Source: Bifidobacterium aquikefiri (GTDB lineage Bacteria > Actinomycetota > Actinomycetes > Actinomycetales > Bifidobacteriaceae). From it: a stretch of 64,000 nt of DNA. Position numbers and translations under genes: made by a program. The stretch covers positions 558,001-622,000 of the forward strand of contig NZ_MWXA01000005.1 of assembly GCF_002259795.1 (NCBI RefSeq). The letters run 5' to 3'. Of the stretch, positions 56,639 to 62,984 are shown one piece after another. Numbering within the stretch: position 1 is the first letter of the stretch; each line of letters starts with the position of its first letter. The notes beneath the pieces are model-generated. The model searched no databases, was not told the DNA's origin, and saw nothing but the letters and a program-made list of their open reading frames with translations.

Positions 56639-57517
56639 TCATGATTGTGATCTATGGTTCTTGATCGATTCAATGTCTGGGTTCGAATCAGGATCGCGTT
56701 CCCAATCAATGATTGTGCACAATTCCAACAGCAGTCGTTCAATGTCAAGGTCTGGGTCAATCAATCTCTGAACAAGCAGACCGTCGGTCACTGCATTGAA
56801 AATGCGGTTGAGATCACTTGGCTCGAGCTTCGAGCTGACGATGCCTCTCTTCTGCAATCGCTTGAGCATCGGAACCGAGATTGCCGATGAAATGTTCCTA
56901 CGTTCCAAAAAGTAGGCGTGAGCGGGATTGGCCTTGTCAGCGGCACGCACTGATATGTATGAGTAGAGTTCCACGAGTCCTGGAACCTGTGCCTTATGAG
57001 CCATGATGCGCACCAGCCGGGAGAGCACATCAACGTGTTCGCGTGACTGCGAAGGCATGAGCCTTAGCCGTGCATCGAGGAGTTTGCCTGCCCTTTCGGC
57101 CAGTTCAGACATTGAGCTTTCCGAACCTGAATGCTTGTGTTCGGACGACGCGGTCGCTGCTGAGACGGAATCGGTGCCTGAATCTTGAAGATTATCCTGA
57201 TCAGCCTCCGCTTCGGCTTTCTTGCATTCGGTCTCCGCATCAGAAGGTCGAATTGCACTGTTTTCAGTGTTCAGTCGGAACAATTCGTACAGTTCGTTCT
57301 TGTCGTTCTCACGCAGAATTTCGACGTACAGATCGTCCTTTGTTCCGAAATAGTGCAAGAGACCGGCTTCGGAAAGATTGACAGACTCGGCGAGCTCTCG
57401 AAGCTTTGTCGATTCAAACCCGTTCTCTGCAATGAGTTTTAACGCCTGGCTGAGAATTTCCTGGCGCTTGAGCACTCCCTTTGAATAAGATCCGCGTTTT
57501 TTCGTCATTCCAATCAT
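56639..57517 (-). CDS. TetR-family transcriptional regulator with acidic insertion
   Basis: 292 residues from ATG 57517 (MIGMTKKRG). The N-terminal helix-turn-helix is clear (RQEILSQALKLIAENGFESTKLRELAESVNLSEAGLLHYFGTKDDLY). Between it and the ligand domain lies about 55 residues of acidic, Ser-rich low-complexity sequence (ETECKKAEAEADQDNLQDSG and on), absent from ordinary TetR proteins of about 200 residues. It is divergent from the aldo/keto reductase gene and may control it. Confidence 0.88.
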   Translation of the reverse strand: MIGMTKKRGSYSKGVLKRQEILSQALKLIAENGFESTKLRELAESVNLSEAGLLHYFGTKDDLYVEILRENDKNELYELFRLNTENSAIRPSDAETECKKAEAEADQDNLQDSGTDSVSAATASSEHKHSGSESSMSELAERAGKLLDARLRLMPSQSREHVDVLSRLVRIMAHKAQVPGLVELYSYISVRAADKANPAHAYFLERRNISSAISVPMLKRLQKRGIVSSKLEPSDLNRIFNAVTDGLLVQRLIDPDLDIERLLLELCTIIDWERDPDSNPDIESIKNHRSQS

Positions 57518-57686
57518 TCTAGAGCAATAGGTAGAGCAGCACATCTGGATTGTTCAGATTTCATTCAAGCCTGAATCTATCTCTCAGCACAAAATTATTT
57601 CTCGAAATACTCATGCTTATTGTTGTTGGGACACATATACGAGTATGGAAAATCGTACATAATCGCCATATGAGAGGATTTCGACA

Positions 57687-58577
57687 GTGAACGAACAACA
57701 AGGCAAACAGCAAGAATCGACGCGTGACTTCATGAATCCACCGGACATTCCGGTCAGAAAATCACACAGCGGTTTAGAACTTCCTGCAATAGGATTCGGC
57801 ACATACAAGATCAATGGATTCGATGGAATTGAGTCCATCGAGTCTGCTCTGCGGGTGGGCTACCGGCTCATTGACAGTGCCTATAACTATGAGAACGAGG
57901 GAATCGTTGGTCGCGCAATCCGCGAGTCCGGCATTGCTCGTGAAGACATACAGGTCACCAGCAAACTCCCCGGCCGGCATCAGGATTACGACGGCGCACG
58001 CGTAACGATCGAAGAAAGTGTTGCGCGCATGGGCCTCGACTACATCGATCTGTATCTGATCCATTGGCCGAACCCATCCAAGGGAAAGTACACCGACGCA
58101 TGGCGAGCGCTTGTCGATGCTCAAAAGCAGGGAATCGTGAAGCATATTGGTGTGAGCAACTTCCTGCCTGGCCATATCGACATGCTCATTCATTCGACCG
58201 GCGTTGCTCCAGAGGTGAATCAGATCGAATTGCACCCCTACTTCCAGCAGACCGCGCAACGCGCCTATGACAAGACTCACGGGATCATTACCGAGGCATG
58301 GAGTCCTCTGGGCCGCGCCAATCAAATGCTCAAGGATACGACATTGACGGCCATTGCCAAGAAACATGGGATTTCTGTGGTACAGGCAATCCTCCGCTGG
58401 CACGTGCAGATTGGCGACGTTTGCATTCCCAAGTCCACGAACCCGGAACGTCAGCGTGCCAACATCGATTTGACCGGTTTCACCCTCGATGGTGATGACA
58501 TGATGAAGATTGCGGCTCTCGATAATCCAGAAGGACGTTCATTTGCTCAGAATCCACAGTGGTACGAGGAATTCTAG
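57687..58577 (+). CDS. Aldo/keto reductase
   Basis: NADPH-dependent carbonyl reductase of the AKR superfamily, 296 residues. The catalytic tetrad is visible: Asp and Tyr in LIDSAYNYENE, Lys in VTSKLPGR, His in YLIHWPNP; cofactor-binding IPKSTNPERQRANI is near the C-terminus. Close to 2,5-diketo-gluconate reductase-like members. Start is a GTG at 57687, preceded by AGAGGA. Natural substrate unknown. Confidence 0.92.
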   Translation: MNEQQGKQQESTRDFMNPPDIPVRKSHSGLELPAIGFGTYKINGFDGIESIESALRVGYRLIDSAYNYENEGIVGRAIRESGIAREDIQVTSKLPGRHQDYDGARVTIEESVARMGLDYIDLYLIHWPNPSKGKYTDAWRALVDAQKQGIVKHIGVSNFLPGHIDMLIHSTGVAPEVNQIELHPYFQQTAQRAYDKTHGIITEAWSPLGRANQMLKDTTLTAIAKKHGISVVQAILRWHVQIGDVCIPKSTNPERQRANIDLTGFTLDGDDMMKIAALDNPEGRSFAQNPQWYEEF

Positions 58578-58850: not shown

Positions 58851-60410
58851 TTGGGGAAGAAAGTTGTGGTCGTAGGAGCCGGCATCGGTGGATTGTCGGC
58901 AGCCATTCGTTTGCAGCATGCGGGATATTCGGTTGAAATCTATGAGAAGCAAAGCATGCCCGGTGGCAAGATGCATCAGATTCATGAGCAGGGCTTTACT
59001 TTTGACGTTGGCCCAACGATCGTGATGATGCCCTCGATCTATCAGGATATATTCCGTCTCTGCGGCCGCAACCCAGATGACTACATTCCCATGACGCGTC
59101 TTGATCCGATGTATGAGGTCTTCTTCGAAGGTAGTCCGATGCGTCACTATGCGATCAACAACACTCTCCCTGATCTGATGAAGATGGTTGAGAGCAAGGG
59201 GCCCGAAAATGCCAAGGGTTTCCTTGACTATCTCAGCGTCATCCATACACGTTATCAGGTGGCGTATCAGCACTTCATCACAAGGCCTTTCCGTCATCGA
59301 CGTGATATGTACAACCCATACATGCTCGTTCAGGCGATGAAGCTCAAGACCTTCGACAGTGCCGATCACATGATGGCAAAGTTCATGTCCGACAAAGACC
59401 TGCAACGCATGCTGAGTTTTCAGACCCTATATATCGGTGTATCGCCTGCCAACGGCCCTTCGCTCTACAACATCATTCCGATGATTGAGCTGCTCTATGG
59501 TATCTGGTTCATCAAGGGTGGCATGCATACCATGGCCGAGCAGATGGCCAGACTGTTCGAAGAAATCGGCGGAAAAATCCACTACAACGCTGATGTTCAG
59601 AGCATAGTGACGTCCTCTGGCAGCAATCAGGGCAAGAGTCCGTCCACGCCCGATACCACCGGAAAGCCCGAGGTCAAGGGCATCGAGATTGATGGCAGGC
59701 TTGTCAAGTCTCCATACGTGGTTTGCAACGCCGACTTTCCTTACGCGATGAAGCATCTCATCGACAACCCCAAGGTGCGGGGAAAGTATTCACCGAAGAA
59801 GATCGACAAGATGGACTATTCATGCTCATGCCTGGTGTTCTATTGGGGGGTGAAGGGCACGTATGACAAGCTTTCGACACATAATTTCGTAATTTCGTCA
59901 CAGTACGACGAGAATCTGCGCAGTATCTTCGACGGCACCGAAATTCAACAGCCTTCGATATATCTGCATATTCCGACTCAGACCGATGCGAGCATGGCTC
60001 CAGACGGCATGTCCGCCTTCTATGCGCTGGTCCCTATCTCCGAGCTGGGAACGGCCCGGTACGAGTGGAACGAACAGACCGTGGAGCTCTATCGCAATAA
60101 GGTAATGGATGCACTCACACAACTCCTGGGACTCGAAAGACTCAAGGAAGACATTGTATTCGAAAAGGTGTTTACACCTCATGACTTCGCACACGAGTTC
60201 AATGCATATCGAGGTGCCACCTTCGGACTTCAGCCAACCCTGTTGCAGAGCAATCACTGGCGACCACAGGCAAAAGCCAAGCATTGCAAGGGATTATATT
60301 TCACAGGCAGCAGCACGCATCCAGGTGCAGGCGTGCCAATCGTGATGCAAAGCGGTAAAATCTGTGCGGAAGAACTGCGACGTGACGAGAAAGGCGACAC
60401 TTTTGAGTGA
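58851..60410 (+). CDS. crtN: CrtN-like 4,4'-diapophytoene (dehydrosqualene) desaturase
   Basis: FAD-dependent desaturase that introduces conjugated double bonds into a colourless C30 (or C40) precursor. The Rossmann motif VVGAGIGGLSAAIR, the CrtN-like FTFDVGPTIVMMPSIYQDIF, LSFQTLYIGVSPANGPSLYNII, IKGGMHTMAEQMARLF, MDYSCSCLVFYWGVK and the C-terminal GSSTHPGAGVPIVM are all present; overall it resembles Staphylococcus CrtN more than C40 CrtI as I recall them. 519 residues. Start is a TTG at 58851 following GGGGA. First gene of a three-gene overlapping operon. Confidence 0.88.
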   Translation: MGKKVVVVGAGIGGLSAAIRLQHAGYSVEIYEKQSMPGGKMHQIHEQGFTFDVGPTIVMMPSIYQDIFRLCGRNPDDYIPMTRLDPMYEVFFEGSPMRHYAINNTLPDLMKMVESKGPENAKGFLDYLSVIHTRYQVAYQHFITRPFRHRRDMYNPYMLVQAMKLKTFDSADHMMAKFMSDKDLQRMLSFQTLYIGVSPANGPSLYNIIPMIELLYGIWFIKGGMHTMAEQMARLFEEIGGKIHYNADVQSIVTSSGSNQGKSPSTPDTTGKPEVKGIEIDGRLVKSPYVVCNADFPYAMKHLIDNPKVRGKYSPKKIDKMDYSCSCLVFYWGVKGTYDKLSTHNFVISSQYDENLRSIFDGTEIQQPSIYLHIPTQTDASMAPDGMSAFYALVPISELGTARYEWNEQTVELYRNKVMDALTQLLGLERLKEDIVFEKVFTPHDFAHEFNAYRGATFGLQPTLLQSNHWRPQAKAKHCKGLYFTGSSTHPGAGVPIVMQSGKICAEELRRDEKGDTFE

Positions 60411-61494
60411 TGGCCAGGATGGCAGCCACGGCAATGCTGCGAGCGATACAAAAAAGCTAGTCACACCCGCTTTTTCCGAACCACATGACTCGCATTCCCC
60501 GTCAGTTTCACTGGAACAGTCGTTCAAGGCAGCTTGCTCGATCATGCAGACTGAGGCAGTGAGCTTTTATCAGGCATTCAGGGGACTGCCGGAAGATCGC
60601 TTCAAGGCAGTGGCAGCGGTCTACGCGTTCTGCCGCTACGCCGACGATCTCGTAGATGAGGGAGGCAGTGCCGCTCTTCCTCAGCTCGACGATCTGGAGG
60701 GTTCAGTTCGCTCGCTGTTTGAGCAGACACGATCCCGCGATACCCGAATCAGCACGGCCGACGACGCTTTCCACGACAATGATTCCAGACAGCAAAAGCC
60801 CAAGGCGACCATGGCACCCACGCTCCCGTGGTGGCCAGCATTTGTCGCCAGCATCCGCAGATTTGGGGTGCAGGAGCAAGGACTTCTGATGCAGATTCAA
60901 GGTCAGAGAATGGATGCGGACTTCCATGACATCGAGACCACTGCCGAACTCATCGAATATTCACGCCTGGTCGCAGGTTCGGTGGGTATTGTATTGGTTC
61001 CGATTCTCGTGAACGACATGAACGGCATTCACGATTTAGGCTTCATGCAGGCATGCGAGGAATTGGGCATAGCAATGCAGATCACCAATATTTTGCGTGA
61101 TGTCGGAGAGGATATCCGCAAACGCAATCGTGTCTACATTCCTCACGATCTACTTGAAGCCCATGGCATCACACGAAATCTTCTTAGCTCACTCGCTCAG
61201 GAGAATGTGAGTACGCAGCGTATCGTGATACCAGAGGCATTTGTGTCTCTCTGGGAGCGGCTTGCCACTCTTGCGGATCGGTATTACCTGCCGTATGAAC
61301 GTCATATCGACAGCTTCCACAAGTCAGCTCGCGTGCCCCTCATCACAGCGGCAAAGCTCTATCAGGCGATAGAACAGGCAGTTCGGGATCAATCGTATGA
61401 CTGCTTCACCAGGCGCTGCTATACCAGCAAGGCAACACGTCTCCGCATCGTTACACAAATACAGCTACGGGAGAAGGCACTATGGAAAATTTAG
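60403..61494 (+). CDS. crtM: CrtM/CrtB-like squalene/phytoene synthase
   Basis: Condenses two prenyl diphosphates (FPP to C30 dehydrosqualene, or GGPP to C40 phytoene). The two Asp-rich motifs are intact: CRYADDLVDE and NILRDVGEDIRKRNRVYIP, plus SRLVAGSVGIVLVPIL. A linker of about 40 residues (TRSRDTRISTADDAFHDNDS and on) is inserted after the first motif. The frame opens at GTG 60364; I prefer TTG 60403 (LSDGQDG), which follows AAAGG and overlaps the crtN stop by 8 bases. Chain length is inferred from the CrtN-like partner. Confidence 0.85.
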   Translation: MSDGQDGSHGNAASDTKKLVTPAFSEPHDSHSPSVSLEQSFKAACSIMQTEAVSFYQAFRGLPEDRFKAVAAVYAFCRYADDLVDEGGSAALPQLDDLEGSVRSLFEQTRSRDTRISTADDAFHDNDSRQQKPKATMAPTLPWWPAFVASIRRFGVQEQGLLMQIQGQRMDADFHDIETTAELIEYSRLVAGSVGIVLVPILVNDMNGIHDLGFMQACEELGIAMQITNILRDVGEDIRKRNRVYIPHDLLEAHGITRNLLSSLAQENVSTQRIVIPEAFVSLWERLATLADRYYLPYERHIDSFHKSARVPLITAAKLYQAIEQAVRDQSYDCFTRRCYTSKATRLRIVTQIQLREKALWKI

Positions 61495-62984
61495 TGAGTC
61501 TGGCCATTTCACTGGCATACATTCTGCTGGTTCTGGGCCTGGCAACTCTCGTTGCACATATTCAGGGGGGCCGCAGTGAATACTCCCGCAAACTTGTGCA
61601 TGTCATGGTTGGCAACTGGGTGTTCATCACACCTTTCTTCACATCGCTCTGGGCGGTTGCATTGGTGCCCTTAACCTTTATTGTTGTGAACGCGCTGAGC
61701 ATCCGCTTCCATTTCTTCAAGGCTATGGGACGAGAGCATGAAAATCTTGGCACGGTCTACTATGCGTTCAGCATGTTCGTTCTCAGTTCCGCTGCATTCC
61801 TGCTTGGCTGGAGAGAACTCGCGTTCATCGGTCTGCTCACCATGGCGTATGGCGATGGCTTCGCTTCGTTGGTCGGCAGGCGTTGGGGCAAGCATCATCC
61901 GTTCTCCTTTGCGCGGGAGAAATCACTTGAAGGCAGCGTGACCGTTGCCATTACTGCCTTTATCGTCTCGTTGGCATGCGTTGCACTGGTTCGGGAATTA
62001 CATGATGAAACAAAAACGATGAATCGCGCCTGGGAATTCGGCATGAGCGCATCCTTTGCCATCTTTGTGACAGAATCGGTACTTATCGCACTCGCCACAG
62101 CGATATTTGCCGCCTTCGTCGAACTCACGGGAAAGAACGGATGCGATAACCTCTCAGTCCCGATATGCACCGGTGTGTTCGCATCACTCCTGCTGCGTTA
62201 TGGATCTGTTGGCATGACTGTATATTTGCTGGTTGCATTAGGCATTCTGATCTATGCATATCAGAAATCGGCAATCACGGCAGATGGGATCGTTGCTGCC
62301 GAGCTTACTGCTGCCACGCTCTATGCCTTCTCTTCGATCTGGGTGGCTGCGAGCCTTCTGCTCTTTTTCATCGCTGGATCTCTCGTATCGAAGATCAGCA
62401 ACTCCACGAAGAAGCGTGGTGAATGTCGTCAGGGAGATGCGGGCGCAAGAAATTGGAAGCAGGTGCTGTGCAACTCGCTGCCGGCATGCGTTGCACTCTG
62501 GCTGGCACATTTCTCGCATAACACGAATACTGCTGCACTCATCTGCTTCAGCGTCTTTGCAGCTGCGTGCGCCGACACCTTCTCGTCCGAGATTGGCATG
62601 CTGAGCCGCGGCAAAGTGCTCAATCTGATCAACATGAGGCCAGTTCCCAATGGAACATCAGGCGGCGTGACATTGCTAGGCATTGCCGCAGGCATGGCGG
62701 GAAGCGCCCTGCTTGCCATTCCTAGCGCAGGTCAATATGGAATTCGTGGCTTCCTCTTCGTTCTCGTTCTTGGGTTCTTCGGAACTCTCATCGATAGCGC
62801 ATTGGGTTCGACCATCCAGCAACGTTTTGCTGACAAGCATGGCCAGCTTATGGATGCTCCAGCGTATCCAAGGCAGCGTGCAGTGGTGGGCATCGCGTAT
62901 GCCAGCAACAACGTAGTCAACATGCTCAGCCTTATTCTCATATGCATTTTCGCGTACTTCCTCAAAGGTCTCGTTGTCCCCTGA
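61482..62984 (+). CDS. VTE5-VTE6 fusion: prenyl alcohol kinase plus prenyl-phosphate kinase (DUF92)
   Basis: 500-residue polytopic membrane protein made of two families. Residues 1 to about 225 match the dolichol/phytol/farnesol kinase (SEC59/VTE5, COG0170) family: SEYSRKLVHVMVGNWVFI, AYGDGFASLVGRRWGKHHPF and AREKSLEGSVTVAITAF. Residues about 240-500 match DUF92/VTE6 (COG1836): CADTFSSEIGMLSRGKVLNL, PNGTSGGVTLLGIAAGMAGS, LIDSALGSTIQQ and YASNNVVNMLS. VTE5 uses CTP to make prenyl phosphate and VTE6 makes the diphosphate. It overlaps crtM by 13 bases, so it should supply that synthase with substrate. Confidence 0.85.
   Translation: MENLVSLAISLAYILLVLGLATLVAHIQGGRSEYSRKLVHVMVGNWVFITPFFTSLWAVALVPLTFIVVNALSIRFHFFKAMGREHENLGTVYYAFSMFVLSSAAFLLGWRELAFIGLLTMAYGDGFASLVGRRWGKHHPFSFAREKSLEGSVTVAITAFIVSLACVALVRELHDETKTMNRAWEFGMSASFAIFVTESVLIALATAIFAAFVELTGKNGCDNLSVPICTGVFASLLLRYGSVGMTVYLLVALGILIYAYQKSAITADGIVAAELTAATLYAFSSIWVAASLLLFFIAGSLVSKISNSTKKRGECRQGDAGARNWKQVLCNSLPACVALWLAHFSHNTNTAALICFSVFAAACADTFSSEIGMLSRGKVLNLINMRPVPNGTSGGVTLLGIAAGMAGSALLAIPSAGQYGIRGFLFVLVLGFFGTLIDSALGSTIQQRFADKHGQLMDAPAYPRQRAVVGIAYASNNVVNMLSLILICIFAYFLKGLVVP

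What the first reader, a model, noticed from the sequence alone, without database searches (positions are those of the whole stretch)
58851..62984. Carotenoid operon carrying its own prenyl-alcohol salvage enzyme (CrtN-CrtM-VTE5/VTE6 fusion)
Seen: three plus-strand genes overlapping by 8 and 13 bases; a CrtN-like desaturase, a CrtM-like synthase and a fused VTE5/VTE6-type membrane kinase. Known: VTE5 and FOLK family enzymes phosphorylate phytol or farnesol; VTE6 (DUF92) makes the diphosphate; CrtM joins two FPP. Inference: the cell turns free farnesol (or geranylgeraniol) directly into prenyl diphosphate and then into a carotenoid, bypassing or supplementing de novo FPP supply. No crtE/ispA gene is nearby. 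I know of no described system joining these three activities in one operon.
Basis: partly seen in the sequence, partly recalled or inferred. Interest (0 to 1): 0.88.

Follow-up and report, generated by a model that had tools for sequence, protein, structure and literature searches.

The report
Carotenoid operon with attached prenyl-alcohol kinase
A small gene cluster that should make a 30-carbon carotenoid also carries a fused pair of membrane kinases that probably turn free farnesol into that carotenoid's building block; the same partnership recurs in distant groups of bacteria, and its function still needs a bench test.

Summary
In detail: crtN (58851-60410), crtM (60403-61494) and a 500-aa membrane protein K (61482-62984) overlap by 8 and 13 bases. 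K's C-half is DUF92, the VTE6 family. Its N-half has no curated family hit but keeps the R-K-x-x-H clamp and paired aspartates of SEC59/VTE5-type kinases. The linkage is the real result: of 876 sampled genomes (one family, two other classes), 23 carry a CrtM-type synthase over the Pfam cut-off, and in all 23 K, fused or as two neighbouring genes, lies next to it. The reverse fails: K occurs without crtM. One holder matches Eubacterium limosum ATCC 8486 by exact genome length; its CrtM is reported to use FPP, not GGPP, so farnesol is likelier than geranylgeraniol. 'Bypass' is not needed: this genome has HMG-CoA reductase and two polyprenyl synthases outside the window. The SEC59-DUF92 fusion was noted in archaea in 2015. 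My searches found no paper tying it to carotenoids. No kinase activity is shown. A new variant of a known kind, worth a simple bench test.

The parts
58851..60410 (+). crtN: desaturase of the CrtI/CrtN family, predicted 4,4'-diapophytoene desaturase, TTG start
   Evidence: crtI_fam 450.7 bits over cut-off 238.1; 51% identical to the CrtN of G726, taken to be the E. limosum CrtN assayed in PMC11611032
60403..61494 (+). crtM: squalene/phytoene synthase family, predicted dehydrosqualene (4,4'-diapophytoene) synthase, TTG start
   Evidence: SQS_PSY 173 bits; aspartate motifs D81 D82 D85 and D233 D237 invariant in 17 aligned homologues; PDB hits
60403..60410 (+). 8-base overlap crtN/crtM
61482..62984 (+). 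K: fused two-domain membrane protein, predicted CTP-dependent prenol kinase (N-half) and prenyl-phosphate kinase (C-half)
   Evidence: DUF92; alignment of 23 homologues; 11 hydropathy segments over threshold
61482..61494 (+). 13-base overlap crtM/K
61482..62201 (+). K N-half (residues 1-240), SEC59/DGK1/VTE5-like by motif; no curated family hit
61587..61601 (+). R36-K37-x-x-H40 motif, same order and spacing as the charged clamp Arg29-Lys30-His33 of Plasmodium PolK
   Evidence: R36, K37, H40 invariant in 23 rows; clamp described in PMC10849223 (passage)
61854..61856 (+). Asp125 codon, first of two invariant aspartates of the N-half
62145..62147 (+). Asp222 codon, second invariant aspartate of the N-half
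62232..62939 (+). K C-half: DUF92 / COG1836 (VTE6 family)
   Evidence: PF01940 190 bits, residues 251-486
62574..62576 (+). Asp365 codon, invariant aspartate of the DUF92 half
62793..62795 (+). Asp438 codon, invariant aspartate of the DUF92 half

Best explanation
The operon is a C30 carotenoid module with a built-in supply line. K's N-half (SEC59/VTE5-like) phosphorylates a free prenyl alcohol, most likely farnesol, with CTP; its DUF92 half adds the second phosphate to give farnesyl diphosphate; CrtM joins two FPP to dehydrosqualene (4,4'-diapophytoene); CrtN desaturates it to a 4,4'-diaponeurosporene-type pigment. K supplements rather than replaces de novo FPP. Shown here: gene order, domains, motif conservation, selection and recurrent linkage. 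Shown in print for the E. limosum homologues, in E. coli: CrtM makes 4,4'-diapophytoene, and CrtN desaturates it (tested with the L. plantarum CrtM). Inferred: both kinase steps, the chain length used by K, and co-transcription.
For: Every genome with SQS_PSY over the cut-off in the three samples has K beside crtM: 4 of 4 (among 189), 6 of 6 (among 391), 13 of 13 (among 296); adjacency. In five clostridial genomes K is two neighbouring genes at the same place, so both activities, not the fusion as such, are kept with crtM. In G405 and G505 crtN is divergent while crtM and the two kinase genes stay together. K and crtM trees agree on the main groups. Residues of the kind proposed for catalysis are invariant in both halves in 23 rows. 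VTE6 (COG1836, equated with pfam01940 in PMC5898192) is a phytyl-phosphate kinase and VTE5/FOLK are prenol kinases in plants, with a preference for CTP (review PMC9782597, passages). K-like proteins occur in genomes where no SQS_PSY was found, which fits a role before CrtM rather than on the carotenoid.
Against: I found no activity, substrate or phenotype reported for any of these K proteins. E. limosum CrtM makes its C30 product in E. coli without K. E. limosum made no carotenoid under strict anaerobiosis. The genome can make FPP precursors itself. The N-half has no curated family hit and no structure could be predicted. No farnesol source or uptake route was identified. K-like proteins also occur where no crtM was found, so K is not specific to carotenoids. 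Not every synthase has K: two SQS_PSY genes of an Ignavibacteria MAG (G341) and a second copy in G338, at a contig end, have none in view.
Confidence: 0.6

Rival explanations
1. K recycles farnesol that the cell itself makes when phosphatases hydrolyse FPP, or handles other endogenous polyprenols; it sits with crtM because crtM is the main drain on FPP. No outside farnesol is involved.
For: The genome has its own isoprenoid genes; K-like proteins occur without crtM; archaeal DUF92 genes neighbour uppS (PMC5898192).
Against: The strict link to crtM (23 of 23) is not expected for a general recycling enzyme.
Confidence: 0.2
2. K has another acceptor: it phosphorylates phytol, geranylgeraniol or a longer prenol, and CrtM in some of these species joins C20 units, giving C40 hydrocarbons.
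For: VTE5/VTE6 in plants act on phytol and phytyl phosphate; CrtM of L. plantarum accepts GGPP; the window's CrtM is only 31% identical to the E. limosum one.
Against: E. limosum CrtM did not convert GGPP; the residue aligned with S. aureus F26 (position and chain-length role recalled, from no call) is Phe in all 17 aligned CrtM; the E. limosum crtE was judged non-functional for C40 carotenoids.
Confidence: 0.12
3. K acts after CrtM or CrtN, as a CTP-dependent transferase that phosphorylates or cytidylylates a carotenoid-derived alcohol or another membrane lipid.
For: K belongs by motif to the wider CTP-using cytidylyltransferase/dolichol-kinase superfamily (PMC5898192).
Against: I noticed no oxygenase that would make a carotenoid alcohol among the ORFs listed around eleven related operons (most of those ORFs were read by eye, not scanned); K-like proteins occur without crtM.
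Confidence: 0.05

Closest known systems
C30 carotenoid crtM/crtN genes (S. aureus, Lactiplantibacillus plantarum, Leuconostoc, Eubacterium limosum; PMC11611032)
   Different: The kinase genes beside the E. limosum crtM seem not to be discussed: the main text has no 'operon', 'kinase', 'downstream' or 'hypothetical'
Plant phytol/farnesol salvage: VTE5 or FOLK plus VTE6 (review PMC9782597)
   Same: Two successive CTP-preferring kinases, one SEC59/VTE5-like and one of COG1836, turning prenol into prenyl diphosphate (predicted here)
   Different: Here fused or adjacent and tied to a carotenoid synthase rather than to tocopherol; activity not shown
SEC59-like/DUF92 two-domain protein Mbar_A3310 of Methanosarcina barkeri (PMC5898192)
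   Same: Same domain order as described there; paired aspartates kept in both domains
   Different: Archaeal; the family's one conserved context given there is uppS, with no link to crtM in the section read. I did not align its sequence
Plasmodium prenol kinase PfPolK (PMC10849223)
   Same: R-K-x-x-H clamp with the same spacing; farnesol/geranylgeraniol phosphorylation with CTP shown
   Different: No diphosphate product was detected; no DUF92 half is mentioned in the passages read

Membership tests
DUF92 / COG1836 (VTE6 family) | Pfam PF01940 over its gathering score | tested here: met
   190 bits against 27.5, residues 251-486; the one match in the genome
DUF92 / COG1836 (VTE6 family) | NCBIfam TIGR00297 over its cut-off | tested here: not met
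   107 bits against 205.85
DUF92 / COG1836 (VTE6 family) | Two conserved aspartates proposed for metal binding (PMC5898192) | tested here: met
   D365 and D438 invariant in 23 rows; that these are the two residues meant in the paper is my reading
DUF92 / COG1836 (VTE6 family) | Prenyl-phosphate kinase activity with CTP | not testable with these tools
   No assay possible
SEC59/DGK1/VTE5 (COG0170) prenol kinases | Curated profile hit (Pfam or NCBIfam) | tested here: not met
   No relevant hit at E up to 10 for the N-half or the separate protein of G726; a distant relative in L043 reaches PF01148 at E 0.011, 16 bits, below its cut-off of 24
SEC59/DGK1/VTE5 (COG0170) prenol kinases | R-K-x-x-H charged clamp and paired aspartates | tested here: met
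   R36, K37, H40, D125, D222 invariant in 23 rows; clamp from PMC10849223. No named VTE5, FOLK or SEC59 sequence was available to align
SEC59/DGK1/VTE5 (COG0170) prenol kinases | Common fold with a known member | not testable with these tools
   Structure prediction switched off; no PDB sequence hit
SEC59/DGK1/VTE5 (COG0170) prenol kinases | CTP-dependent prenol kinase activity | not testable with these tools
   No assay possible
CrtM dehydrosqualene synthase | SQS_PSY domain with both aspartate-rich motifs | tested here: met
   173 bits; D81 D82 D85 and D233 D237 invariant in 17 rows
CrtM dehydrosqualene synthase | Uses FPP (C15), not GGPP | tested here: inconclusive
   Reported for E. limosum CrtM, only 31% identical
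CrtN desaturase | CrtI/CrtN family profile over cut-off | tested here: met
   TIGR02734 450.7 bits against 238.1

The most novel reading that the evidence does not exclude
The module's main job is to consume farnesol. Bacteria of largely anaerobic groups (inferred) take in toxic or signalling farnesol from hosts, plants or yeasts, K pyrophosphorylates it in one polypeptide (or a two-gene pair), and CrtM/CrtN lock it into C30 membrane lipids: a farnesol-to-hydrocarbon sink spread between distant lineages by transfer, with the carotenoid as the disposal form and the undesaturated C30 product as the usual one without oxygen.
Probability: 0.2. Interest if true: 0.82.

Novelty: new variant of a known kind. 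Interest (0 to 1): 0.62.

Why it matters
A 2022 review calls farnesol/geranylgeraniol salvage a missing pathway and says that only a few genes, in photosynthetic organisms, are unequivocally identified (PMC9782597). It may also help explain why an obligate anaerobe keeps C30 carotenoid genes, which the 2024 study found surprising.

Tried and rejected
Homology between K's two halves by profile comparison: not significant (hhalign P 0.16). Ignavibacteria MAG (L010/G341) as a second type of link: its DUF92 fragment lies on another contig than its two side-by-side SQS_PSY genes, so no link is seen. Plasmid homologues: none for the VTE5-like protein of G726, one DUF92-only hit for K. Compositional sign of recent transfer: none, operon GC 0.51-0.54 against 0.53 for the window. 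MEP pathway: no GcpE match in this genome, but HMG-CoA reductase present. Promoter and terminator scans: no more sites than in shuffles. Fisher tests ignore relatedness and are not relied on.

Counts dropped or qualified; of 149 genomes of the phylum 15 matched the K profile; besides the window's own and G330 the other 13 match one half or part, and the eight of their loci that were fetched (L014-L021) show no crtM; 25 of 391 matched; 9 have both halves, 6 of these beside crtM and 3 not (G562, G392, G603); the other 16 match one half or part; 14 of 296 matched; 13 counted, the 14th (G966) is a weak partial match. and 8/56 seem to use the same samples (same sizes and handles); that is inferred. 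In one search one genome (G651) had an SQS_PSY match below the cut-off and was not counted. G338 has K beside crtM but came in by another search and is not among the 23; its second SQS_PSY copy lies at a contig end with no K in view. G971, counted, has K cut by contig ends. L008 is a K 56% identical to the window's over the part held, after a MarR gene and with no crtM upstream; the contig ends inside K, and its genome had no SQS_PSY match. In one search the gaps of G874 and G809 were printed in the wrong order; I took -1 and 5 from the coordinates. The CrtM alignment used 17 of the 23 CrtM available; alignment A4 left out L041-L043 and L053-L055. dN/dS of K in the other class was 0.17-0.29.
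Full report
What is there. Three plus-strand genes, crtN 58851-60410, crtM 60403-61494 and K 61482-62984, overlap by 8 and 13 bases exactly as described. CrtN scores 450.7 bits against the CrtI-family model (cut-off 238.1), CrtM 173 bits against SQS_PSY (cut-off 26), and K's residues 251-486 score 190 bits against DUF92 (cut-off 27.5). The genome has one DUF92 match, K. The other class of the same phylum searched below I take to be Coriobacteriia, family Eggerthellaceae (inference).

It does keep E33, R36-K37-x-x-H40, D125, K147, E214 and D222 in all 23 aligned homologues (five rows are the joined proteins of split pairs). In 28 sequences that include distant stand-alone relatives the same residues are invariant except K37, which is at 90% or more. 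The R-K-x-x-H order and spacing match the charged clamp Arg29-Lys30-His33 proposed for the Plasmodium prenol kinase (PMC10849223, passages). The DUF92 half keeps D365 and D438. PMC5898192 (one section read whole) describes the same pairing in Methanosarcina barkeri: an N-terminal SEC59-like domain on a DUF92 protein, both with two conserved aspartates, and suggests a kinase step in isoprenoid synthesis for the family. The fusion architecture is therefore already noted; its place beside crtM is what I did not find in print.

Linkage. K matches in 4 of 189 genomes of its own family, and the same 4 are the only ones of 189 with SQS_PSY. In a sample of 391 genomes of the class of a Clostridia MAG, 6 have SQS_PSY over the cut-off; in 296 genomes of another class of the window's phylum, 13 do. 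All 23 have K next to crtM (in G971 K is cut by contig ends). In G405, G505, G637, G688 and G726 K is two separate genes side by side, VTE5-like then DUF92, at the same place after crtM. In G405 and G505 crtN is divergent, so there crtM stays with the kinase genes rather than with crtN. Spacing between crtM and the kinase gene is -16 to +33 bases in 22 of the 23 operons (which holds G338 in place of G971) and 69 in G853, where an earlier start would give 3. These genomes are not independent: in the trees they fall into one clade of the window's group, one clade of the other class and about four clostridial lineages. The link holds in each.

The link is one-way. K-like proteins without a neighbouring crtM exist: G562, G392 and G603 in the same clostridial sample; L008 (56% identical over the part held, after a MarR gene); and L009, two adjacent genes in a Bacilli MAG. 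L010 shows only a DUF92 fragment. G339 (L008) and G340 (L009) had no SQS_PSY match, nor, if the samples are the same, had G562, G392 and G603. K therefore seems to have a use outside carotenoid synthesis, which argues for a step before CrtM. Conversely, two SQS_PSY genes of the Ignavibacteria MAG G341 and a second copy in G338 have no K in view, so the rule is not universal.

Substrate. G726 holds a contig of 4,422,837 bases, the genome size printed for E. limosum ATCC 8486 (PMC5651825, passages). PMC11611032 (abstract and sections 2.1, 3.2, 3.5, 3.6 and 4 read) reports that E. limosum CrtM makes 4,4'-diapophytoene and does not convert GGPP, and that its CrtN makes 4,4'-diaponeurosporene when paired with the L. 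plantarum CrtM. G726 has one SQS_PSY match, so the assayed crtM should be the one beside the kinase genes. Farnesol is thus the best guess for K. The window's CrtM is 31% and its CrtN 51% identical to those of G726, so this is an extrapolation. The same paper's table has nine bifidobacterial strains with no crt gene entered.

Need for salvage. The genome has HMG-CoA reductase, no GcpE match, and two polyprenyl synthases outside the window, so K most likely supplements FPP supply. E. limosum CrtM works in E. coli without K. In relative G140 a polyprenyl synthase lies upstream of the operon.

History. K and CrtM trees both place the window's group with two Clostridia MAGs (G337, G338) away from the other 17 rows (100/100 support in both; unrooted, long branches flagged by the tool). 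This suggests transfer of the operon between these lineages. Base composition shows no recent import. The window and relatives G130 and G141 share flanking genes; the fourth holder, G140, does not within the 14 kb fetched. Both halves of K look to be under purifying selection, with synonymous change near saturation in the more distant pairs.

Literature. In the held library DUF92 with carotenoid found nothing. Searches combining crtM, phytol, farnesol and dolichol kinase, prenyl alcohol and operon (6 papers), C30 carotenoid, dehydrosqualene synthase and farnesol kinase, farnesol, C30 carotenoid and salvage, and prenol-kinase terms listed no title on such a system; only listings were seen. For Eggerthella with carotenoid or squalene 12 of 2,560 papers were listed, so that search proves nothing. 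Subscription papers are mostly not held. Absence from print is not proven.

Verdict. The mechanism, farnesol to FPP to C30 carotenoid, is the best reading at about 0.6, with both kinase steps inferred.

Noticed in passing
L085:3373-4470 (G140): A polyprenyl synthase gene lies upstream of crtN in one relative, with a reversed fragment of a second crtN (L085:4504-4806) between them.
   Followed up: partly
L076:9818-11050 and L077:10949-12181: In G405 and G505 the gene right after the divergent crtN encodes an M48 peptidase with a CAAX prenyl protease N-terminal domain (Pfam), an enzyme type linked to prenylated proteins.
   Followed up: partly
L077:7609-9203: Two transposase-like genes lie between crtM and the divergent crtN in G505 (by eye, not scanned).
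   Followed up: no
L079:3360-4872: crtN of G688 is in two overlapping frames, so broken or a sequencing error in this assembly.
   Followed up: no
L007:2431-2544: Only 38 residues of a crtN end are found before crtM-K in this MAG contig; truncation or misassembly.
   Followed up: no
L008:1619-2032: A MarR-family regulator gene precedes a close K relative that has no crtM upstream.
   Followed up: partly
L036:1-2145: A VTE5-like gene in G549 is followed by what looks like a DXS gene (by eye, not scanned), another possible tie to isoprenoid supply.
   Followed up: no
L041 and L043: Clostridial proteins of about 440 aa carry the VTE5-like domain followed by a second half without a DUF92 hit; L043 reaches PF01148 weakly.
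   Followed up: partly
window 56639-58577: A TetR-family regulator and an aldo-keto reductase gene precede the operon and keep their place in G130 and G141.
   Followed up: partly
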